Shown: positions 18,983 through 29,122 of the stretch, piece after piece
Layout of the letters: every line of letters begins with the position of its first letter
Position numbering within the stretch: the stretch's first letter is position 1
Assembly (NCBI GenBank): GCA_919901855.1
Contig: CAKKQC010000044.1
Span: forward strand, 478-29,599
Direction: 5' to 3'
DNA: 29,122 nucleotides
Source of the DNA: a bacterium
GTDB taxonomy: Bacteria > Oederibacteriota > CAKKQC01
Translations under genes and position numbers: made by a program
The notes under the pieces: generated by a model
The model's database searches: none
The model's input: only the letters and a program-made list of their open reading frames with translations
What the model was told of the DNA's origin: nothing

Positions 18983-20029
18983 GTGATCAAGTACCTGGGG
19001 TCGAAGCGGCTGATCGTGGACCGGATCGTCCGGGCCGTCAATGCGATCCCGGGGACTCGAAGCGTCCTCGACCTCTTCTCCGGCACCGCCCGCGTCGGCC
19101 ACGCCCTCAAACGCGCCGGGTACCGGGTCCTGGCCAACGACCACAACGAGTACGCCCGGGTCCTCGCGACCTGCTACGTGGCCGCCGATCGCGAGAAGGT
19201 TCTTGCCCCCGCAACCCGGCTCGTCCGCGAGTTCAACCGCCTCCGGGGGAAGCCCGGGTGGTTCACCGAGACCTTCTGCGTGAACTCCCGATTCTTCCAG
19301 CCGAAGAACGGGGCGCGCGTCGACGCGATCCGGGACGCGATTCGTGGGAAGGGGCTGGAGCCCGAGCTCGAGGCCGTCCTGCTCACGTCGCTCATGGAGG
19401 CCGCCGACCGCGTGGACTCGACGACCGGGGTCCAGATGGCGTACCTGAAACGCTGGGCGCCGCGGGCACTGGGCGACCTCGAGCTCCGGGTGCCGGACTT
19501 CCTGCCGCGGGCCCGGGCCGGGAAGGGCGAGGCGCACGGACTCGACGCATTCGAGGCGGCGGCGCGGCTCGAGGCCGACGTCGCGTATCTCGATCCTCCC
19601 TACAACCAGCACTCGTACCTCGGCAACTACCACGTCTGGGAGTCGCTCGCGCGCTGGGACCGGCCGGAGGTCTACGGCATCGCGCGCAAGCGGCTGGACG
19701 TCCGGAGCCGCCAGAGCGTGTTCAACTCCCGGCCCCGGTTCCGGGCGGCCTTCAGCCGGCTGGTCCGCGCGGTCCGGGCGCGGACGCTGATCGTCTCCTT
19801 CAGCGACGAGGGCTACCTCGACCGGGCGGCGATGGAGGAAGTGCTCGGCCTGCGCCCGGCCGTGGGCGTGGTCGCCATGGACTTCAAACGCTATGTCGGC
19901 GCCCAGATCGGCATCTACAACCCCCAGGGCGTGAAGGTGGGGAAGGCCGGGCGACTGCGCAACCGCGAGTTCCTGTTCATCGCGGGCGCGCGGCGGGTTG
20001 TTGACCGGGCAATGGCGGCGTTATCCTGA
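18983..20029 (+). CDS. D12-class N6-adenine DNA methyltransferase
   Basis: 348 residues. The SAM-binding motif is VLDLFSGTARVGHALKRAG (28-46) and the catalytic motif DPPY is at 204-207 (AYLDPPYNQHSYLGNYH). MIKYLGSKR at the start matches the family's KYxGSK motif. These are the alpha-type (SAM motif before DPPY) marks of Dam/D12 methylases that modify adenine N6. It starts with GTG; GGGAGG sits 10 nt upstream. No restriction endonuclease is next to it, so it is either an orphan methylase or part of a split system outside the window. It is 20 nt after deoC and on the same strand, an unusual neighbour for sugar genes. Codon use looks like that of its neighbours. Confidence 0.88.
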   Translation: MIKYLGSKRLIVDRIVRAVNAIPGTRSVLDLFSGTARVGHALKRAGYRVLANDHNEYARVLATCYVAADREKVLAPATRLVREFNRLRGKPGWFTETFCVNSRFFQPKNGARVDAIRDAIRGKGLEPELEAVLLTSLMEAADRVDSTTGVQMAYLKRWAPRALGDLELRVPDFLPRARAGKGEAHGLDAFEAAARLEADVAYLDPPYNQHSYLGNYHVWESLARWDRPEVYGIARKRLDVRSRQSVFNSRPRFRAAFSRLVRAVRARTLIVSFSDEGYLDRAAMEEVLGLRPAVGVVAMDFKRYVGAQIGIYNPQGVKVGKAGRLRNREFLFIAGARRVVDRAMAALS

Positions 20030-20095: not shown

Positions 20096-21661
20096 ATGAA
20101 GAAGCCCGGCAAGGTGGCCGCGATGCTTACTTCGGCGCTGGTGTCCCTCGCCGGCGGCGGCCGGGCCGGGGCCGCCGGGATCGAACGCGCCCCCGTGCAT
20201 GCGGGGTCGTTCTACCCTGCGGGGAAGTCCGAAGCCGAGGCCCTGCTCAAGGGCTACCTCGCGAAGGCGACCCCGCCGCCGGGCCCCGTGCCGCGCGCGG
20301 TCGTCGTCCCGCACGCGGGCTGGCAGTACAGCGGGCCGACGGCGTCCTGGGCCTACAAGGCCCTCGCGCGGGGGGCGGAAACGATCACGCGCGTGATCCT
20401 GCTCGCCCCGAGCCACTACGTAGCGTTCCGGGGCGTCGTCGTCAACGAGCGCTCCTACCGGTCGCCGCTCGGGGTCTGTCCCCTCGACACGGAGGCGATC
20501 GCAACGCTCAAGAAGGGGGACTTCGCGCAGGCCGACATGCAGGGGCCGGGGACGCGCGAGCACGCGGACGAGGTCCAGATTCCGTTCATCCAGACCGTCC
20601 TTCCCAAGGCCCGGCTCGTGCCCCTGATCGTGGGAGAGCTGGCGCCCGGCGACGCCGAGCACACGGCGCGCGCGATCTCGACGATCCTGGACGAGCACAC
20701 GGTGATAATCGCCAGCTCGGACTTCACCCACTACGGCCTCCGGTTCGGATTCGCGCCGCCGCTGGGCCGCGACATCCCGGCCGGGCTTCGGGACCTCGAC
20801 CTCGGGGCGGCTGACCGCATCACGCGCGGGGACGGGGAGGGTTTCGCTGCCTACGTCGACCGGACGGGCGCCACGATCTGCGGCCGGAACCCGATATCGA
20901 TCCTGCTGGCCGTCTTCAAGGTCAACCGCTGGCGGGCCAACGGGAAGGTGCTCCAATACGCGACGAGCGGCGCGCTGACCGGGGACTGGTCCTCGAGCGT
21001 CAGCTACTGCGCGATCGCGCTGGGCGACGTCTCCATACCGCCGAGGGCGAAGGCGGTCGCGGCTACCGGGACGAAGACCTCGGCCGCTCCTGCGACCACG
21101 TTGTCCCCGGCCGACGGGGAGGCGCTCCTGAAACTGTCGCGCTACGTGCTCAGAAAGTTCGTTGTCGACAAGGTTTCGCACTTCACGGAGGAGGAACTCG
21201 AGCCCTTCGGGCTGACGGCGGCGGCGAAGGGCCAGCTCGGGGCCTTCGTAACGCTGCGGGAGCAGGGCCAGCTCCGCGGGTGCATCGGCCACATCGTCCC
21301 GCGGTTCCCCCTGTACCGGGGCGTCGTCGAGAACACGATGAACGCCGCCTCCCGCGACCCGCGGTTCGGGTCCGTCAAGCCGGGGGAGCTGGCGGCGATC
21401 ACGATCGAGATCTCGGTCATGTCGCCGCTCGTGAAGGTCGAGTCCGTGGACGAGATCGTGGTCGGGCGCGACGGGCTCGTGCTCGTGAACGGGCAGAACA
21501 CGGGCGTCTTCCTGCCCCAGGTGCCGGGGGAGCAGGGCTGGGACAAGGACACGTTCCTCCAGCAGCTCGGGGTGAAGGCGGGGCTCGATCCCGGCGCGTA
21601 CCGCCGGCCGGACACCGAACTCTACCGGTTCACGGCGCGGATCTTCGAAGAGAAACCCTGA
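20096..21661 (+). CDS. amrB: Exported AmmeMemoRadiSam B-A fusion (MEMO1 domain + AMMECR1 domain)
   Basis: 521 residues from the ATG at 20096 (GGAGGGG 8 nt upstream); this start gives a Sec-type signal (MKKPGKVAAMLTSALVSL, cleavage near AGAAG). A GTG at 20060 with AGGAG is an alternative that adds 12 residues. Residues 30-312 are the MEMO1-like domain: VVVPHAGWQYSG (His73), LLAPSHYVAF (His107), REHADEVQIPF (His156), ASSDFTHYG and TICGRNPIS (Cys262), the residues that form the metal site in human MEMO1. Residues 338-521 are the AMMECR1-like domain with the LRGCIGHIVP motif (393-402). The two domains are separate genes in many bacteria. AmmeMemoRadiSam function is unknown. It is followed within 1 nt by an iron-sulfur membrane protein gene. 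Confidence 0.92.
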   Translation: MKKPGKVAAMLTSALVSLAGGGRAGAAGIERAPVHAGSFYPAGKSEAEALLKGYLAKATPPPGPVPRAVVVPHAGWQYSGPTASWAYKALARGAETITRVILLAPSHYVAFRGVVVNERSYRSPLGVCPLDTEAIATLKKGDFAQADMQGPGTREHADEVQIPFIQTVLPKARLVPLIVGELAPGDAEHTARAISTILDEHTVIIASSDFTHYGLRFGFAPPLGRDIPAGLRDLDLGAADRITRGDGEGFAAYVDRTGATICGRNPISILLAVFKVNRWRANGKVLQYATSGALTGDWSSSVSYCAIALGDVSIPPRAKAVAATGTKTSAAPATTLSPADGEALLKLSRYVLRKFVVDKVSHFTEEELEPFGLTAAAKGQLGAFVTLREQGQLRGCIGHIVPRFPLYRGVVENTMNAASRDPRFGSVKPGELAAITIEISVMSPLVKVESVDEIVVGRDGLVLVNGQNTGVFLPQVPGEQGWDKDTFLQQLGVKAGLDPGAYRRPDTELYRFTARIFEEKP

Positions 21662-21662
21662 G

Positions 21663-22703
21663 ATGATCCGGCCGCTCGTCCTGGCGGCGGTCATGAGCGC
21701 GCTGAGCTGGCGGGTGTACGCGGGCCGTCCCGCCGCCCTCGGGGTTGCCCTGGTCTGGTCGGCGCTGGTCGCGGCGGGCGCCGCCTGGATGGAGGCGCGC
21801 GGGCGGCTGGCGCTCTACCGCCGGGTTTACTTCGCCGTCCTCGCGGCGTGCTTCCTTCTCCAGATGCACCTGCCGCGGGCGGGGCCCAACCTCGAACCGT
21901 ACTGCCACCTCGGCCTCGCGGGGAACGCGCTCCACACCGGGTACAACCAGTTCCTCGCGATCGCGGGAGGGACCTGGGGTGCGTACGGCCCCCTGAGCCT
22001 CGGACTGCTCTGGCTCCTCGTCGTCCTCGCGTGCGGCGGCTCGCTCTGCGGCTGGGTCTGCTTCTTCGGCGGCGTGGACGACACGCTGTCGTCCCTGCGG
22101 AAGCCCCTCTTCCGCATCCCGAACGCGAGCCGGATTCGCGTCTTCCAGCTCGCGCTCCTGCTCGTGATCGCGGCGACCTCGTTCGTCCACATGGAGCCCG
22201 AGTTCTGCCGGATGCTGTGCCCCTTCAAGCTCACGGGTGATATCGCCCAGTCGTACGCGCACCCGGCGCTGACGTGGGGGCTCTCGTTTGCCCTCGTCGG
22301 CGGCGTCTTCGTCGTGGGACTCCCGCTCCTGACCGGCCAGCGCACGTTCTGCTCGGGCGTCTGCCCGTTCGGGGCGATCCCGCCGCTCGTCGCCGGGCTG
22401 AACCCGTACCGGGTCGCGATCCGGGATGACGCCTGCACCGGGTGCTCGACCTGCGCGTCCGTCTGCCCGAGCTTCGCCATCGATTCGCGCCCGGGAAGCG
22501 CGTCCATCAACCGCTACTGCACCGCGTGCCTGCGGTGCGTGGACCCGTGTCCCGCGAACGCGATCCGACCGGCGCTCTTCGGCCGCCGCGAGAGCCGGCT
22601 CTTTCCCTGGGTTACGCTCGCGCTCGGCGGCGCGCTCTCGGTGTTCTACGTGCCCGCCGGTGTCCTTGCCCTCGTCCGGATCGCGGGGGGCCACCCGGCG
22701 TGA
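21663..22703 (+). CDS. NapH/YccM-like polytopic membrane protein with two 4Fe-4S clusters
   Basis: 346 residues. Several membrane spans occur between residues 5 and 225 and one near 315-340. The membrane part contains the paired Cys motifs CGGSLCGWVCFFGG (124-137), CRMLCPFKL (182-190) and CSGVCPFGA (230-238) typical of NapH-type electron-transfer proteins. A ferredoxin domain follows with CTGCSTCASVCP (258-269) and CTACLRCVDPCP (286-297), ligands for two 4Fe-4S clusters. Such proteins pass electrons from the quinone pool or ferredoxin to partners across or at the membrane. Here it lies between the MEMO1-AMMECR1 fusion (1-nt gap) and the spermidine-synthase-like gene (4-nt overlap). A role in supplying electrons to the radical SAM enzyme or the exported fusion is inferred. 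Confidence 0.92.
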   Translation: MIRPLVLAAVMSALSWRVYAGRPAALGVALVWSALVAAGAAWMEARGRLALYRRVYFAVLAACFLLQMHLPRAGPNLEPYCHLGLAGNALHTGYNQFLAIAGGTWGAYGPLSLGLLWLLVVLACGGSLCGWVCFFGGVDDTLSSLRKPLFRIPNASRIRVFQLALLLVIAATSFVHMEPEFCRMLCPFKLTGDIAQSYAHPALTWGLSFALVGGVFVVGLPLLTGQRTFCSGVCPFGAIPPLVAGLNPYRVAIRDDACTGCSTCASVCPSFAIDSRPGSASINRYCTACLRCVDPCPANAIRPALFGRRESRLFPWVTLALGGALSVFYVPAGVLALVRIAGGHPA

Positions 22704-24826
22704 CGCTCGCCGCCGTCGCCGGAGCCCTGTCGGTCGTCGCGCAGGCCGTCCTCGTCCGCGAGCTCGCCGTGCTCTTCCGGAACAACGAGCTCGTGCTCGG
22801 CATCCTCCTGGGCGCGTGGCTGGCCGGCAGCGCGGTGGGGGCTGCCGGGTTGGGTCGCCTGCCGGCGGGGTGGCGCTGGCGCAGCGGCTGGCTGCTCTTG
22901 GCGCAGATGCTCCTCGTCCTCGCCGACGTCTTCGCGATCCGGTGGCTGTTCGGCGTCTGGCAGTTCCACGCCCGGCCGCCCCTGCCGGTTGTCGGTGGCG
23001 TCGCGTTCGCGCTCACGGCTCCCGCGGGGGCGCTCGCGGGTCTCACGTTCGCGTCGCTGGCGACGTTCCGGTCCGGGCCGCTGGCGAGCGCGATCTACGT
23101 GGCGGAGGCCGGGGGCGCCTGCCTGGGCGGGCTCGCGTTCGCCGCCCTCCTCGCGGCGGGCTGGCACGCGATCGACGTGGTCGTAGCCGCGCTCTTCGTC
23201 GTGCTCGTGTTCCTCATCAACTCCGGGCGGGCCCGGCCGTGGGGCCGGCTCGCGGCCTCCCTGGCGGTGCCCGCGCTCGGCCTCTGGCTGTGCCTGCCGC
23301 TCCTGCGGGCGGCCGACGACGCGGGGCGGCGGCTCCAGTACCGGAAGACCCCGCTCGTCTTCGCGCGCGAGTCGCGGTGGGGCCACCTCGCGCTGACCGG
23401 GGGCCCGGGTTTGGGCGCCTTCTGGTACAACGGCGAGGTCATCGTCCAGCGCGACCTCGCGGCCGAGGAGGAGGAAACGCTCTGTCCCATCCTCGCGGCG
23501 GGCGTCCCGTCCTCGATTCTCGTCCTCGGGTTCTGTCCCGACACGCTCCTCGCGGGCTGGCAGGCGCTCGGGGTCCGCCGGATCACGGCCGTGTTCCAGG
23601 ACGAGGTCATGATGCTGTTCGAGGACTACGGGTCGGGTCGCCGCGAGGGATACTCGTTCTCGCCGCGGTTCGCGGACCCCTTCCGGTGGGCGACGGTGGT
23701 GCGGGAGCGGTACGACCTCGTCGTGGTCCGGGAGCCCCTGCCGGTCACGATCGCGGCGAACCGGTTCTTCGCGCGGAGCTTCTACGAGGGGCTCCGGGGC
23801 GCGCTCGCCCCGGGCGGCGTCGTCGCGGTCGCGGTGGCGTACGAGGAGAACGGGCTGGACCCGCGCACGGCGCGCGCGCTCGCGATCGTGCAGGCCACGC
23901 TGGGCGCGGCCTATCCGGCGGGTGGGATCGTGGCCGCGGGCCGGTTCTGGTTCTTCGCCTCCGGCGCGCCCCTGGCGATGGGGCCGGCCGACGCGCGGCG
24001 CCGGCTCGCGGCGCTGCCCGCCGTGCCGAGGTTCGTGAACGCGGCCTGGGTGGCGCACACGTTCGCGCCGGAGCGGACCTCGAGGTTTGAGCGCGAGCTC
24101 GAGGCCGCGGGACCGGTGCCCGTGAACGGCGTCTTCACCATGGCGCTCTTCCGCGACGTCCTCCGCGGGTGGGTGCGCCGGGACCTGGGAGATACGGGGA
24201 AACTGCTGCTGATCGTGCTCGCGGCACTGGCCGCGCTCGCGGCGGCACGGTGGAATGCGCTCCGCGGGATCGCGCTCCGCCGGCCGGGGGCGTTCTGGCT
24301 CGCGGCGGCCGGCTTTGCCGGGATGGCGGGCGAGGTCCTGCTCCTGTTCTGGTACCAGGGCGTGACCGGCGTCATCTACGACCTCTTCGCGCTGCTCACG
24401 GGGCTCTTCATGCTCGGGATGGCCCTGGGGGGACACGCCGGTTTGGGCTGGGGCCCGGCTTCGCGCGGCGTGGGCTTCGCCGGATTGCTGCTGGCCGGCT
24501 GGGTGGCGGCCGTGGGCGCGCTCTTCCTGCTCCCGGTGCCGCCGGGGGGCGTGGTCGCGGACGCCGTCGCGTTCGCGCTCAGCGGCCTCGGCGGCGCCGC
24601 CCTCGGCGCGGTCTTCACGGGGGTCGCCCGGCACCGGGAGAAAGCCGGCGCTTCGCCGGCCGCGGTCAGCGGGCTCTACGCCGCCGACCTCGCGGGGTCC
24701 GCGGTCGCCGCGGTGGCGGTGCCCGCCCTGCTCGTGCCCGTCCTCGGGCTGCCCGGCACCTCGGCCGCCGCCGTCGCGGTCCTGGTCCTGGCCCACGGGC
24801 TCGCGGGCCGCCACACGTGGGACTGA
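22700..24826 (+). CDS. Spermidine-synthase-like multi-span membrane protein
   Basis: 708 residues. Hydrophobic spans at 1-200 and 510-700 flank a soluble domain (about 210-500), a layout seen in spermidine-synthase-like fused membrane proteins. VRELAVLFRNNELVLGILLGAWLAGSAVG (19-47) matches the start of that family. The central domain keeps the order expected for a spermidine synthase fold (YNGEVIVQRDLAAEEEE, SILVLG, YDLVVVREPLP, FYEGLRGALAPGGVVAV). The glycine-rich SAM-binding loop GGGxG, however, is replaced by LGFCPD (276-281). True polyamine synthesis is therefore doubtful. It may bind a different ligand or act as a flippase or scaffold. The GTG start lies within GTGA of the previous stop. 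The next gene overlaps its end by 10 nt. Confidence 0.85.
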   Translation: MTLAAVAGALSVVAQAVLVRELAVLFRNNELVLGILLGAWLAGSAVGAAGLGRLPAGWRWRSGWLLLAQMLLVLADVFAIRWLFGVWQFHARPPLPVVGGVAFALTAPAGALAGLTFASLATFRSGPLASAIYVAEAGGACLGGLAFAALLAAGWHAIDVVVAALFVVLVFLINSGRARPWGRLAASLAVPALGLWLCLPLLRAADDAGRRLQYRKTPLVFARESRWGHLALTGGPGLGAFWYNGEVIVQRDLAAEEEETLCPILAAGVPSSILVLGFCPDTLLAGWQALGVRRITAVFQDEVMMLFEDYGSGRREGYSFSPRFADPFRWATVVRERYDLVVVREPLPVTIAANRFFARSFYEGLRGALAPGGVVAVAVAYEENGLDPRTARALAIVQATLGAAYPAGGIVAAGRFWFFASGAPLAMGPADARRRLAALPAVPRFVNAAWVAHTFAPERTSRFERELEAAGPVPVNGVFTMALFRDVLRGWVRRDLGDTGKLLLIVLAALAALAAARWNALRGIALRRPGAFWLAAAGFAGMAGEVLLLFWYQGVTGVIYDLFALLTGLFMLGMALGGHAGLGWGPASRGVGFAGLLLAGWVAAVGALFLLPVPPGGVVADAVAFALSGLGGAALGAVFTGVARHREKAGASPAAVSGLYAADLAGSAVAAVAVPALLVPVLGLPGTSAAAVAVLVLAHGLAGRHTWD

Positions 24827-26010
24827 GACCCGCCGCCGCGCTCACCGCGGGAGAGAGGGCGCGGCTCGCACTCTCCCTCGCGGTCACCGCGCTCTGCCTG
24901 GCCGGCTTCCTGGCGGCGAAGTCCCCGCGGATCCTGGGGGCTGCCGTTCCCGACGGCTCCCGGGCGCGCGAGGCCCACTGGTGGCACGCGACCGACCTCG
25001 GCGTCCAGTGCGACCTCTGCCCTTTCCGGTGCTATCTCCCCGAGGGGGCCAAGGGGAAGTGCCGGGTCCGGATCAGCGCGGGCGGAAAACTGTGGACGAT
25101 GGTCTGGGGCCAGCCGGTTTCGGTCGCCGTCGACCCGATCGAGAAGAAGCCCGTGTTCCACATGCTGCCGGGCTCCGCGATCCTGTCGCTGGCCACCGTC
25201 GGATGCCCGCTGCGGTGCGACTTCTGCCAGAACTGGGCGATCTCGCAGTGCGATCCCGAGTCGGTGAAGCCGTCCGCCGAGCTCGCGGCGCTCCGCCAGA
25301 CGCCCGGCCCCGGGTTCCTGCCGCCCGAGGACGTGGTCGCGCTGGCGGTCAAGAACCGGATCCCCGCGCTCGCGTACACGTACTCGGAGCCCGCGATCTT
25401 CTGGGAGTACGTGTTCGACTGCGCTAAGTTGGCGAAATCGCGCGGCCTGCGCAACGTCATGGTCACGTCGGGCTGGATCAACCCGGAGCCGCTGAAGGCG
25501 CTCGCGCCGTACCTCGACGTCGTCAAGGTGGACCTCAAGGGGATGCGCGAGGATTTCTACCACGACGACGTCGGCGGAAGGCTGGAGCCAGTGCTGGACA
25601 CGCTCCGGCTGCTCAAGCGGCTCGGGGTCCTCGTCGAGGTCGTGAACCTCGTGGTGCCCACTCGCAATGACGCCGACGCCGACCTTGAGCGGCTGGCCCG
25701 GTGGGTGCGCGACGAGTTGGGGGCCGACACGCCCCTGTTCTTCAGCCGGTTCCACCCCGACTACCGGTTCACGAGCGTGCCCGCCGGGTCCGTGGAGACC
25801 CTCGACCGCGCCCGGCGGATCGCGATGCGGGCTGGCCTTCACTATGTGTACGTCGGTAACGTGCCCGGCGACGAGGGTGAGAACACGTACTGCCCCAAGG
25901 ACGGCACGCTCCTGATCCGGCGCAGCGGGTATCAGATCGTGGAGTACAATCTCATCCGCGGCCGCTGTCCCGTATGCGGCACGCGCATTCCAGGCATCTG
26001 GGGGAGGTGA
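24817..26010 (+). CDS. amrS: AmmeMemoRadiSam radical SAM enzyme with N-terminal membrane anchor
   Basis: 397 residues. Radical SAM proteins split SAM with a 4Fe-4S cluster to make a 5'-deoxyadenosyl radical. The cluster motif is GCPLRCDFCQNW (Cys130, Cys134, Cys137). The AmrS-type N-terminal Cys region is CDLCPFRCYLPEGAKGKCRVR (Cys65, 68, 72, 82, inside a longer run), and the C-terminus has RCPVCGTRIPGIWG. AYTYSEPAIFWEY and VDLKGMREDFYHDDVGG are typical of the family. Residues 16-34 (RLALSLAVTALCLAGFLAA) form a probable membrane anchor or signal, so the enzyme is unlikely to be free in the cytoplasm. The GTG start overlaps the preceding gene by 10 nt, and no strong ribosome site is seen. No downstream start keeps the Cys cluster intact. 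Confidence 0.93.
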   Translation: MGLRPAAALTAGERARLALSLAVTALCLAGFLAAKSPRILGAAVPDGSRAREAHWWHATDLGVQCDLCPFRCYLPEGAKGKCRVRISAGGKLWTMVWGQPVSVAVDPIEKKPVFHMLPGSAILSLATVGCPLRCDFCQNWAISQCDPESVKPSAELAALRQTPGPGFLPPEDVVALAVKNRIPALAYTYSEPAIFWEYVFDCAKLAKSRGLRNVMVTSGWINPEPLKALAPYLDVVKVDLKGMREDFYHDDVGGRLEPVLDTLRLLKRLGVLVEVVNLVVPTRNDADADLERLARWVRDELGADTPLFFSRFHPDYRFTSVPAGSVETLDRARRIAMRAGLHYVYVGNVPGDEGENTYCPKDGTLLIRRSGYQIVEYNLIRGRCPVCGTRIPGIWGR

Positions 26011-26013
26011 CCG

Positions 26014-26859
26014 GTGGCAAGACCCAAGCGGCTCGCGTTCGTGGATTACGCCCTCGACAACTGGCATTCGAACACGTACCTCGGCTACCTGCGCGGCGCG
26101 CTCAAGGGACGGGGCTGGGAGGTGGCCGGTTGCCACGCGATGCGGGAGGCGGAGGGGCGTCGCTGGGCGGCCAAGAACCGGATCCCGTACTGCGCGTCGC
26201 CGGTGGAGCTCAACGACCGCGTGGACGCCTTCCTCGTGATGGCGCCGAGCAACCCCGAGACCCACCTCGCGCTCGTCCGCCGCGTCGTGCGGTTCGGCAA
26301 GCCCGTCTGGGTCGACAAGACCTTCGCCCCGGACCTCGCCACCGCGAAGGCGATCTTCGCGCTCGCGGACGCGCACCGCGTCCCCCTCGAGACCAACTCC
26401 GCCCTCCGGTTCACGGCCGTCCAGGCCTACGCCCGCGAGGTCGGCCGGGACGCGATCCGGCACATGGTGGTCTGGGGCGGCGGCGGCCGGCTCGAGGAGT
26501 ACACGATCCATCCCCTCGAGCTCCTGGTCTCGTGCATGGGGCCCAAGGCCGAACGCGTCATGCGGCGCGGGAAGGGCGAGGAGGCCCAGCTCCTGATCGA
26601 CTTCTCCGGCGGCCGCACGGCCGTCGTGAACGTCTACATCGGGACGAACACGGACTTCGCGGCGTCGGTGACGACGAAGCAGGCGACGCGATACATTCCC
26701 GTCGACGGCGGCGTCCTGTTCCGGGACGCGACGGCCGGGATCCTGAACTTCCTCGAGAAGCGGCGGCCGACCTTCGACCGGAAGGAGTCGCTCGTGATCC
26801 GGCGGCTCATCGACCTCACGCTCTCGCCGGCCACCCGTAGGGCGTTCGTCAAGGTGTAG
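26014..26859 (+). CDS. Atypical Gfo/Idh/MocA-like protein
   Basis: 281 residues, shorter than the usual 330-400. The topology is that of the family: VDAFLVMAPSNPETHLALVRRVVRFGKPVWVDKTFAPD corresponds to the segment ending in the EKP motif, here DKT. The N-terminal strand is followed by YALDNWHSNTYLGYL instead of the GxGxxG nucleotide loop. Lys in the DKT motif remains. HPLELLVSCMGPKAERV resembles the region with the conserved HxxD-type catalytic His, here His followed by Pro-Leu-Glu. NAD(P) binding is thus questionable; it may be a binding or regulatory relative. GGGGAGG lies just before the GTG start and overlaps the radical SAM stop by 3 nt. A convergent-facing CRISPR array begins 135 bp downstream. 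Confidence 0.82.
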   Translation: MARPKRLAFVDYALDNWHSNTYLGYLRGALKGRGWEVAGCHAMREAEGRRWAAKNRIPYCASPVELNDRVDAFLVMAPSNPETHLALVRRVVRFGKPVWVDKTFAPDLATAKAIFALADAHRVPLETNSALRFTAVQAYAREVGRDAIRHMVVWGGGGRLEEYTIHPLELLVSCMGPKAERVMRRGKGEEAQLLIDFSGGRTAVVNVYIGTNTDFAASVTTKQATRYIPVDGGVLFRDATAGILNFLEKRRPTFDRKESLVIRRLIDLTLSPATRRAFVKV

Positions 26860-26994: not shown

Positions 26995-29122
26995 GTTTCA
27001 ATCCGCGTCCGGCCTTTCGGCCGGACGATACATGGGGCATCCCGGCGGCGCGGCTGGCGGTGCAGGTTTCAATCCGCGTCCGGCCTTTCGGCCGGACGAT
27101 ACTTCAGGAAGTGCGTGGAGCACACGACAAGATCAAGGTTTCAATCCGCGTCCGGCCTTTCGGCCGGACGATACACGAGGTCGACGGCCTCCCGGTACCC
27201 GGACTCGAAGTTTCAATCCGCGTCCGGCCTTTCGGCCGGACGATACTTGAGGTCCAGTGCCGTGACGTTCGTCATATTGTGGTTTCAATCCGCGTCCGGC
27301 CTTTCGGCCGGACGATACTTCGATGCCAGATGGACGGCGGGCGGGGCCGCGCTGTTTCAATCCGCGTCCGGCCTTTCGGCCGGACGATACCTGACGCTGA
27401 TGAACAGCGTCGCCCCGTCCCGCAAGTTTCAATCCGCGTCCGGCCTTTCGGCCGGACGATACCCGGCAGTCCTCGTACTCGGCGACCGCATTGCTGAGTT
27501 TCAATCCGCGTCCGGCCTTTCGGCCGGACGATACTCCACAGATGCCGCCAAACCCCGGGGACCAACCTGTTTCAATCCGCGTCCGGCCTTTCGGCCGGAC
27601 GATACGCCGCAGGAGGTGCGAAGTGAACGACATTAGGAAGTTTCAATCCGCGTCCGGCCTTTCGGCCGGACGATACTGGCTCCGCCTACGCCGCAGGCCG
27701 CGCCTCTCGTGTTTCAATCCGCGTCCGGCCTTTCGGCCGGACGATACGGGACGTACTGGCGCGGGACTACCAACTGTTGATGGTTTCAATCCGCGTCCGG
27801 CCTTTCGGCCGGACGATACCCCACAGACAGGGAGTAGGACGGCAGAGGGCAAGAGGTTTCAATCCGCGTCCGGCCTTTCGGCCGGACGATACGACTTGCG
27901 CTGTCGTGCGTCGTCATGGTGTGCTTAGTTTCAATCCGCGTCCGGCCTTTCGGCCGGACGATACAGCGCGTGGTCGAGGACGGCGCCCTCACGCTGGTTG
28001 TTTCAATCCGCGTCCGGCCTTTAGGCCGGACGATACCCGAGAAAACCAACCCGTTACACTCGCACTCGGGTTTCAATCCGCGTCCGGCCTTTCGGCCGGA
28101 CGATACCGGGTGGCTCCCGACATGGAGGAAAACATGAAAGCGTTTCAATCCGCGTCCGGCCTTTCGGCCGGACGATACCCGTAGACCCGAAAGCGGCCGT
28201 CACCGTCTACCTGTTTCAATCCGCGTCCGGCCTTTCGGCCGGACGATACACATGTACGGGCGGCCCTTCACGGCGTCAGTGCAGTTTCAATCCGCGTCCG
28301 GCCTTTCGGCCGGACGATACTACACGATGCGCGGGTCCACGGGATCGAAGAAGCTGTTTCAATCCGCGTCCGGCCTTTCGGCCGGACGATACCAAGGCAG
28401 TAGCGGTACAGACGCAGATGACGAAGGTTTCAATCCGCGTCCGGCCTTTCGGCCGGACGATACCCTGCGCCACGGTCAGGGTGGCGGGGGCCATGACGTT
28501 TCAATCCGCGTCCGGCCTTTCGGCCGGACGATACCTGGCCTGCGAGCGCGGGCCCCGCGAGATCACGGTTTCAATCCGCGTCCGGCCTTTCGGCCGGACG
28601 ATACGGCGTCCCCCGGGAGTCCATACAGGGCTCATATCTGTTTCAATCCGCGTCCGGCCTTTCGGCCGGACGATACTCGATTACCTCGGACGTGCTGGCA
28701 TCAGGTTACCTGTTTCAATCCGCGTCCGGCCTTTCGGCCGGACGATACCTTCGTGGCTGGAGGGTTGCGGGTCGGGGGATTGTGGTTTCAATCCGCGTCC
28801 GGCCTTTCGGCCGGACGATACTGGTCCCACGGCCACGGGGCGTTGGGCTTGACGAGGTTTCAATCCGCGTCCGGCCTTTCGGCCGGACGATACACCTCTT
28901 TGGTATACCGAGTGCGAAGGGAAGGCCGTTTCAATCCGCGTCCGGCCTTTCGGCCGGACGATACTCCTCTCGCTCAAGCTGGACCCATTCGGGGATGCGT
29001 TTCAATCCGCGTCCGGCCTTTCGGCCGGACGATACCGCTGGTCAAAGTCGATCTCATCGGGCACGGGGGGTTTCAATCCGCGTCCGGCCTTTCGGCCGGA
29101 CGATACTGGAGTGGTGGCTGGG
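26995..29122 (-). CRISPR. CRISPR array, 30 repeats of 37 bp with 29 complete spacers, open at right edge
   Basis: Repeats start at 26995, 27066, 27138, 27210, 27282, 27354, 27426, 27498, 27569, 27640, 27711, 27783, 27856, 27928, 28000, 28070, 28142, 28213, 28284, 28356, 28427, 28498, 28568, 28640, 28712, 28785, 28857, 28928, 28999 and 29070. Each begins GTTTCAATCCG on the plus strand and ends GGACGATAC. Read on the minus strand it ends in CGGATTGAAAC, an 11-nt handle after a 9-bp stem with loop GAAA. All repeats are identical except the one at 28000. Spacers are 33-36 nt (mostly 34-35). The last spacer is cut at 29122. The ATTGAAAC end and GNRA loop indicate minus-strand transcription, with the leader beyond the right edge. 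The stem plus 11-nt handle resembles subtype I-C repeats, but the length is greater, so the type is uncertain. No cas gene is in the window. Confidence 0.98.
28000..28036 (-). repeat. Variant CRISPR repeat with loop substitution
   Basis: This 15th repeat has A instead of C at 28023. On the minus strand the tetraloop becomes TAAA rather than GAAA. It is the only change seen among 30 repeats. Confidence 0.9.

What the first reader, a model, noticed from the sequence alone, without database searches (positions are those of the whole stretch)
20096..26010. Membrane-associated AmmeMemoRadiSam operon with an iron-sulfur electron carrier and a spermidine-synthase-like partner
The sequence shows four overlapping or touching genes: a MEMO1-AMMECR1 fusion with a signal peptide, a NapH-like membrane protein with two 4Fe-4S motifs, a spermidine-synthase-like membrane protein, and the AmmeMemoRadiSam radical SAM enzyme with an N-terminal membrane anchor. 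The AmmeMemoRadiSam trio is a known co-occurring set with no settled function. Placing all parts at or across the membrane with a dedicated electron carrier suggests an envelope radical or redox modification pathway. MEMO1 metal-site residues (His73, His107, Cys262) are kept, so the exported domain could bind copper or iron.
Basis: partly seen in the sequence, partly recalled or inferred. Interest (0 to 1): 0.82.

Follow-up and report, generated by a model that had tools for sequence, protein, structure and literature searches.

The report
Radical enzyme system outside the cytoplasm
Four neighbouring genes make a version of the poorly understood AmmeMemoRadiSam protein set whose working parts all carry export signals, which would put a radical-SAM enzyme, normally an inside-the-cell machine, outside the cell membrane together with likely suppliers of electrons and cofactor.

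Summary
In detail: MEMO1-AMMECR1 fusion (20096-21661), NapH-like Fe-S membrane protein (21663-22703), spermidine-synthase-like (SPDS) membrane protein (22700-24826) and AmmeMemoRadiSam radical SAM enzyme (rSAM; GTG 24817-26010) lie 1 base apart or overlap. The same parts recur elsewhere in shuffled order. Main new result: this rSAM belongs to one clade (72 of 131 rSAMs; 87 of 133 in a second tree). Most members carry Tat or Sec signals, six of them with a c-type heme motif; everything outside the clade is unsignalled. The partner MEMO-AMMECR1 fusion almost always has a signal peptide or lipobox. A distinct SPDS-like protein tracks the clade genome-wide (30/35, 10/12, 13/14 genomes with it; 0/16, 4/33, 0/36 without). 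Its model has an MFS-transporter fold with the SPDS domain predicted to face outward. NapH/NosR-FMN, DsbD_2 or c-heme modules (electron carriers) sit beside many members, almost never beside cytosolic ones. Best reading: an extracytoplasmic radical-SAM system supplied with electrons, and possibly SAM, across the membrane. Substrate, SAM transport and activity are inferred. One nested subclade lacks a signal on the rSAM, unexplained. New variant of a known kind, of high interest.

The parts
20096..21661 (+). MEMO1-AMMECR1 fusion (AmmeMemoRadiSam proteins B+A), 521 aa, predicted exported
   Evidence: TIGR04336 206.9 bits, TIGR04335 150.9 bits; Pfam Memo and AMMECR1; solved relatives 7kq8, 1vaj
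20096..20176 (+). signal peptide MKKPGKVAAMLTSALVSLAGGGRAGAA
   Evidence: sequence; flagged by the signal rules; relatives have Sec signals or lipoboxes
20186..21019 (+). MEMO domain (residues 31-308) with metal-site residues H73, H107, C262 conserved
21164..21646 (+). AMMECR1 domain (residues 357-517)
21663..22703 (+). NapH-like polytopic Fe-S membrane protein, 346 aa
   Evidence: Pfam Fer4, Fer4_5; TIGR02163 61 bits, below its cut-off
22434..22550 (+). two 4Fe-4S motifs of the NapH-like protein (residues 258-296)
   Evidence: sequence
22700..24826 (+). MFS-fold membrane protein with inserted spermidine-synthase-like domain, 708 aa, GTG start
   Evidence: AlphaFold pLDDT 84.3, pTM 0.88; spermidine synthase and MFS matches
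23339..24142 (+). spermidine-synthase-like soluble domain (about residues 214-481), predicted extracytoplasmic
   Evidence: positive-inside charge pattern over 27 homologues
24817..26010 (+). AmmeMemoRadiSam radical SAM enzyme, 397 aa, with N-terminal anchor
   Evidence: TIGR04337 343.5 bits; start codon
24865..24918 (+). N-terminal hydrophobic segment LALSLAVTALCLAGFLAA, predicted N-in/C-out signal anchor
   Evidence: sequence; clade-wide Tat/Sec signals
25204..25227 (+). radical SAM CxxxCxxC motif (C130, C134, C137)
   Evidence: invariant in all 72 clade members

Best explanation
An extracytoplasmic version of the AmmeMemoRadiSam system. Shown at sequence level: the rSAM is anchored or exported through its N-terminus, the MEMO-AMMECR1 fusion is exported, the SPDS-like domain of the MFS-fold protein is predicted to face the same side, and the rSAM keeps its full cluster motif. 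Inferred: the NapH-like protein (FMN-NosR-like, DsbD_2 or c-heme modules in relatives) carries low-potential electrons across the membrane to the [4Fe-4S] cluster of the rSAM. Inferred more weakly: the MFS-SPDS protein supplies SAM to, or removes adenosyl by-products from, the outer face. The 5'-deoxyadenosyl radical made there modifies an envelope substrate, possibly a lipid, isoprenoid or protein, which the MEMO metal site and AMMECR1 domain then process.
For: Export signals: in a tree of 131 rSAMs all Tat/Sec-signalled members fall in one clade (72 rows, SH-aLRT 96), everything outside is unsignalled, and export needs only 3 changes. A second sample gave 87 rows at 98. Six Tat members carry CxxCH with a nearby His between the signal and the rSAM core, and c-heme is attached only outside the cytoplasm (established knowledge). 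Partner: MEMO fused to AMMECR1 has a signal in 45/49 by rule, standalone MEMO in 6/35. One genome has an exported fusion directly beside cytosolic MEMO and AMMECR1 genes (L242). One Bacteroidota genome lacks the signal on both proteins and has no SPDS (G058). SPDS within 6 kb: 32/72 in the clade, 0/58 outside. Genome-wide: 30/35 against 0/16, 10/12 against 4/33, 13/14 against 0/36 in a second sample. Conduit genes: 20/72 against 1/58. DsbD_2 beside 14/23 Sec-type and 0/39 Tat-type rSAMs, as expected if apo-enzyme exported by Sec needs reduced cysteines outside. Gene fusions: FMN-NosR-like protein ending in the rSAM's own N-terminal segment (L093, L096) and MFS-SPDS-FMN-NosR fusions. Charge pattern: loops predicted inside average 2.4-3.6 K+R, outside loops 0-1.0, placing the SPDS domain outside. 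CxxxCxxC is intact in 72/72.
Against: No experiment exists. SAM is not known outside the cytoplasm of bacteria. A nested subclade (16 rows) has no signal on the rSAM, although its MEMO-AMMECR1 is exported and SPDS is present; in some of them the anchor is a separate overlapping ORF, in others it is gone. L148 has an unsignalled rSAM beside a signalled MEMO-AMMECR1. Signals were called by simple rules, not SignalP. The label changes rarely on the tree, so independent-pair tests have no power (2 pairs) and the Fisher values overstate significance. In the window the SPDS cofactor motifs are eroded (LGFCPD instead of LxGGGxxG), and the synthase's catalytic Asp is missing family-wide. Four genomes of this phylum have SPDS without a detected exported rSAM; where such a locus was read the SPDS lies in an unrelated gene context.
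Confidence: 0.55

Rival explanations
1. Split across the membrane: the rSAM of the window works at the cytoplasmic face (anchor inserted N-out/C-in, or rSAM inside in general), and the MFS-SPDS protein exports its product to the periplasmic MEMO-AMMECR1.
For: Window anchor has charges on both sides; the unsignalled rSAM subclade still has exported MEMO-AMMECR1, SPDS and FMN-NosR; SAM and reductant are available inside.
Against: 39 Tat-type and several cleavable-looking Sec-type relatives, plus six CxxCH-bearing ones, cannot sensibly be cytoplasmic; cytosolic rSAM lineages lack SPDS and conduits.
Confidence: 0.2
2. The exported rSAM-fold protein no longer does SAM chemistry outside; it serves as an Fe-S electron-transfer partner of MEMO-AMMECR1.
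For: No known SAM pool outside; conduits and c-heme insertions suit a pure electron-transfer role.
Against: CxxxCxxC is kept in 72/72 and clade members aligned to the window enzyme are 44-56% identical to it; an adenosyl-binding-type protein tracks the clade.
Confidence: 0.12
3. The MFS-SPDS protein does not move SAM; it makes or exports a polyamine-like or other product used by the system or the envelope.
For: It is a real spermidine-synthase homologue; related lower-scoring proteins occur in many other contexts.
Against: The catalytic Asp region is replaced by PLP..NRFYT; the protein tracks the exported clade rather than AmmeMemoRadiSam in general.
Confidence: 0.35
4. Ordinary cytosolic AmmeMemoRadiSam trio with spurious signal calls or mis-set starts.
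For: Starts were chosen by rule; most loci are from metagenome assemblies; the window rSAM starts at GTG without a clear ribosome site.
Against: Signals are confined to one well-supported clade and absent in all rSAMs outside it; SRRxFLK motifs, lipoboxes and CxxCH recur across many phyla.
Confidence: 0.04

Closest known systems
AmmeMemoRadiSam system (NCBIfam TIGR04335, TIGR04336, TIGR04337)
   Same: All three defining models are passed and the genes are adjacent.
   Different: A and B fused; all parts exported or anchored; extra MFS-SPDS and electron-conduit genes; a separate clade from the cytosolic enzymes.
NapH-like/NosR-FMN and DsbD extracytosolic electron-transfer systems (Meheust et al. 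2021, PMC8238504)
   Same: Same kinds of conduit (PF12801 Fer4_5 membrane protein, FMN_bind, DsbD-type) serving an extracytosolic enzyme.
   Different: No AMMECR1, Memo or radical SAM is mentioned in that paper; the oxidoreductase partners it names are respiratory.
Fused MFS/spermidine synthase proteins (name from memory)
   Same: Spermidine-synthase domain in an MFS-fold protein.
   Different: A distinct high-scoring group tied to exported rSAMs; catalytic Asp lost; domain predicted outside.
Human MEMO1
   Same: Metal-ligand residues His, His, Cys conserved.
   Different: Human MEMO1 is intracellular; here it is exported and fused to AMMECR1.
Pyruvate formate-lyase activating enzyme (PFL-AE, 3c8f)
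   Same: Nearest solved radical SAM structures by profile (E=3.9e-15).
   Different: Cytosolic; the match covers only the core, without the N- and C-terminal Cys motifs and the export signal.

Membership tests
AmmeMemoRadiSam system | rSAM passes TIGR04337 cut-off (220) | tested here: met
   343.5 bits
AmmeMemoRadiSam system | MEMO (TIGR04336, cut-off 26) and AMMECR1 (TIGR04335, cut-off 99) encoded alongside | tested here: met
   206.9 and 150.9 bits
Radical SAM superfamily | CxxxCxxC cluster motif and Radical_SAM domain | tested here: met
   PF04055 73.8 bits; motif in 72/72 clade members
Radical SAM superfamily | reductive cleavage of SAM | not testable with these tools
   needs purified protein
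NapH/MauN (TIGR02163) | passes family cut-off 213 | tested here: not met
   61 bits; so NapH-like, not NapH
Spermidine synthase (PF01564 / NF002956) | passes family cut-offs | tested here: not met
   window 16.8 < 22.9 and 29.2 < 472; relative L039 passes Pfam at 64.1
Spermidine synthase (PF01564 / NF002956) | catalytic Asp motif | tested here: not met
   replaced by PLP..NRFYT across the group
MFS transporters | MFS fold | tested here: met
   SLC37A4 9w1r Z 29.7, rmsd 3.4, 336 aligned over residues 1-706; NarK Z 25.3
MFS transporters | match to an MFS family model | tested here: inconclusive
   no MFS family listed by Pfam
MEMO | conserved metal-site His/His/Cys | tested here: met
   H73, H107, C262

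The most novel reading that the evidence does not exclude
A widespread family of radical SAM enzymes works outside the cytoplasmic membrane, with a dedicated MFS-type SAM (or adenosyl) translocator and dedicated transmembrane electron conduits, making radical chemistry an envelope process.
Probability: 0.4. Interest if true: 0.93.

Novelty: new variant of a known kind. Interest (0 to 1): 0.8.

Why it matters
Radical SAM enzymes are treated as cytosolic because SAM, strong reductant and Fe-S assembly are there. An exported clade across many phyla breaks that rule and predicts two unknown functions: delivery of SAM, or handling of its by-products, outside the membrane, and low-potential electron supply to a periplasmic cluster. 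It also gives handles on the long-unsolved role of MEMO and AMMECR1, which have human homologues: the substrate of the exported branch should be an envelope molecule.

Tried and rejected
Conserved four-gene order: rejected, since content is kept but order and strand shuffle. NapH as a universal partner: rejected, since the NapH profile finds it near only 5/72 clade rSAMs; NosR-like, DsbD_2 or c-heme modules stand in elsewhere. Unsignalled rSAMs as sequencing errors: rejected, because they form one subclade. 'Fusion of MEMO to AMMECR1 implies export': not universal, as Myxococcota have unsignalled fusions beside cytosolic rSAMs. Programmed frameshift in the split genes: considered; the ATGA overlaps fit re-initiation equally well, undecided. 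Phylogenetically independent tests had too few pairs. Literature: no paper found for exported, periplasmic or secreted radical SAM. The key prior survey of Memo/AMMECR1/radical SAM contexts (Burroughs et al. 2019, doi 10.1074/jbc.RA119.007595) is not held, so it may already note signal peptides. A first rSAM alignment and one Pfam call failed on bad coordinates.

Full report
1. What is there. The window (bases 478-29599 of one contig in a 4.68-Mb genome) holds four tightly packed genes on the plus strand: MEMO1-AMMECR1 fusion 20096-21661, NapH-like Fe-S membrane protein 21663-22703, SPDS-like membrane protein 22700-24826 and the AmmeMemoRadiSam radical SAM enzyme 24817-26010. The rSAM starts at GTG 24817, the only in-frame start between the upstream 24250 start and its first Cys motif, giving MGLRPAAALTAGERAR-LALSLAVTALCLAGFLAA-KSPR..., a basic N-terminus and a hydrophobic segment before the catalytic domain.

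2. Same parts elsewhere. In other genomes of the phylum all four parts co-localise in L043 and L046 and three in L060, with different order and strand. A scan of named genomes gave 80 loci from many phyla. MEMO-AMMECR1 fusions and SPDS-like genes sit beside the rSAM in Omnitrophota, Chloroflexota, Latescibacterota, Acidobacteriota, Armatimonadota, Myxococcota, Thermodesulfobacteriota, Bacteroidota and others.

3. The rSAM is exported in one clade. Upstream of the domain, many members have classic Tat motifs (SRRQFLE, TRRDFLK, SRREFLK, NKREFLK), others Sec signals or anchors, including cleavable-looking ones (L038, L039). In a tree of 131 rSAM domains the signalled ones form one clade of 72 (SH-aLRT 96); the export label needs 3 changes and all rows outside are unsignalled. 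With an added independent set the clade has 87 rows (98). Five Tat members in the first set and one in the second insert CxxCH with a later His between the conserved EARYW motif and the first Cys motif, and a seventh locus (L222) has the same motif without a recognised signal. Covalent c-heme is made only outside the cytoplasm (established knowledge), so this is independent support. All 72 keep CxxxCxxC.

4. The partner is exported too. Of distinct MEMO proteins in the first sample, 45 of 49 fused to AMMECR1 have a signal by rule (three of the four misses look signalled by eye) against 6 of 35 standalone ones, two of which are contig-cut fusions. In G083 an exported fusion lies directly next to unsignalled MEMO and AMMECR1 genes (L242), and G055 holds both types. 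In G058 rSAM and MEMO-AMMECR1 both lack signals and SPDS is absent, a matched reversal. In Myxococcota, cytosolic rSAMs sit next to unsignalled MEMO proteins, some fused.

5. The SPDS-like protein. The AlphaFold model (pLDDT 84.3, pTM 0.88) combines a spermidine-synthase domain with an MFS fold (SLC37A4 Z 29.7 over 336 residues spanning 1-706; NarK Z 25.3). Over 27 homologues, loops alternate between 2.4-3.6 and 0-1.0 K+R, which places the SPDS domain, after the seventh helix, outside. SV2A, also matched, carries a luminal domain in the same loop (from memory, not checked here). The synthase's catalytic Asp is replaced by PLP..NRFYT; glycine-rich and acidic cofactor motifs remain in most members but are eroded in the window. 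A high-scoring group of this protein is present in 30/35 genomes with an exported-clade rSAM against 0/16 with only cytosolic ones, 10/12 against 4/33 in the window's phylum (in G033, G034, G036 and G037 it is unlinked and in a housekeeping context), and 13/14 against 0/36 in a second, Myxococcota sample (a cut of 220 bits was used there and 320 bits in the first two, chosen at the gap in each score list). Because it tracks the clade and not AmmeMemoRadiSam in general, I infer that it solves a problem of being outside: supply of SAM or removal of adenosyl products. This is inference.

6. Electron supply. Beside clade members lie NapH/NosR-like proteins, often with an FMN_bind domain, and DsbD_2 proteins, in 20/72 loci against 1/58. 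In L093 and L096 the NosR-like protein ends with the rSAM's own N-terminal segment, and in Myxococcota MFS-SPDS is fused to FMN_bind and NosR-like domains in one chain. These fusions tie conduit, SPDS and rSAM together. DsbD_2 neighbours occur with 14/23 Sec-type and 0/39 Tat-type rSAMs, which fits Sec-exported apo-enzyme needing reduced cysteines outside while Tat exports folded enzyme. NapH-like and DsbD systems are described as extracytosolic electron routes by Meheust et al. 2021 (PMC8238504); no AMMECR1 or Memo is mentioned there.

7. What does not fit. One nested subclade of 16 rows has no signal on the rSAM. In some members the anchor plus EARYW motif is a separate ORF overlapping the rSAM start (mostly ATGA), in others it is missing, yet MEMO-AMMECR1 is exported and SPDS-FMN-NosR is present. 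L148 is a single mismatch. Few changes on the tree mean that association p-values are not independent evidence. Signal calls are rule-based. No paper on an exported radical SAM enzyme was found in the held library, but the closest prior survey (Burroughs et al. 2019) could not be read.

8. Verdict. The envelope interpretation is strengthened and extended; electron supply is well supported; SAM supply by the MFS-SPDS protein is a testable hypothesis; the substrate is unknown, and an envelope lipid, isoprenoid or protein is the best guess. New variant of a known kind, interest 0.8.

Noticed in passing
L093:2029, L132:5433, L126:2450, L105:5157, L301: rSAM gene split from its N-terminal anchor: the upstream ORF ends in the EARYW-like motif and overlaps the rSAM start (ATGA in most), conserved in one subclade across several phyla; frameshift or two polypeptides is undecided.
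   Followed up: partly
L325:4447, L326:3921, L327:3762, L328:3331: Single chains of about 1200 aa joining MFS, spermidine-synthase-like, FMN_bind and NosR-like domains in Myxococcota.
   Followed up: partly
L040:842-1912, L134:7888-8946, L152:8907-9905, L154:8794-9810: DUF362 proteins, many with their own Tat-like signals, directly upstream of Tat-type rSAMs in about a dozen loci; role unknown.
   Followed up: partly
L265:7905-10722 (G083): Exported MEMO-AMMECR1 fusion immediately followed by separate cytosolic MEMO and AMMECR1 genes: two parallel systems side by side.
   Followed up: partly
26995-29106: CRISPR array with 30 copies of a 37-nt repeat GTTTCAATCCGCGTCCGGCCTTTCGGCCGGACGATAC, spacing 70-73 nt; no cas genes examined.
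   Followed up: no
26014-26859: Gfo/Idh/MocA-like oxidoreductase starting 3 nt after the rSAM stop, possibly the last gene of the operon.
   Followed up: no
18983-20029: D12-class N6-adenine DNA methyltransferase just upstream of the operon.
   Followed up: no
G000:C21:41385-42380 (L034): Second, unsignalled AmmeMemoRadiSam rSAM in the same genome, in the cytosolic part of the tree.
   Followed up: partly
L084:354-2440: Two adjacent, divergent rSAM copies of this family.
   Followed up: no
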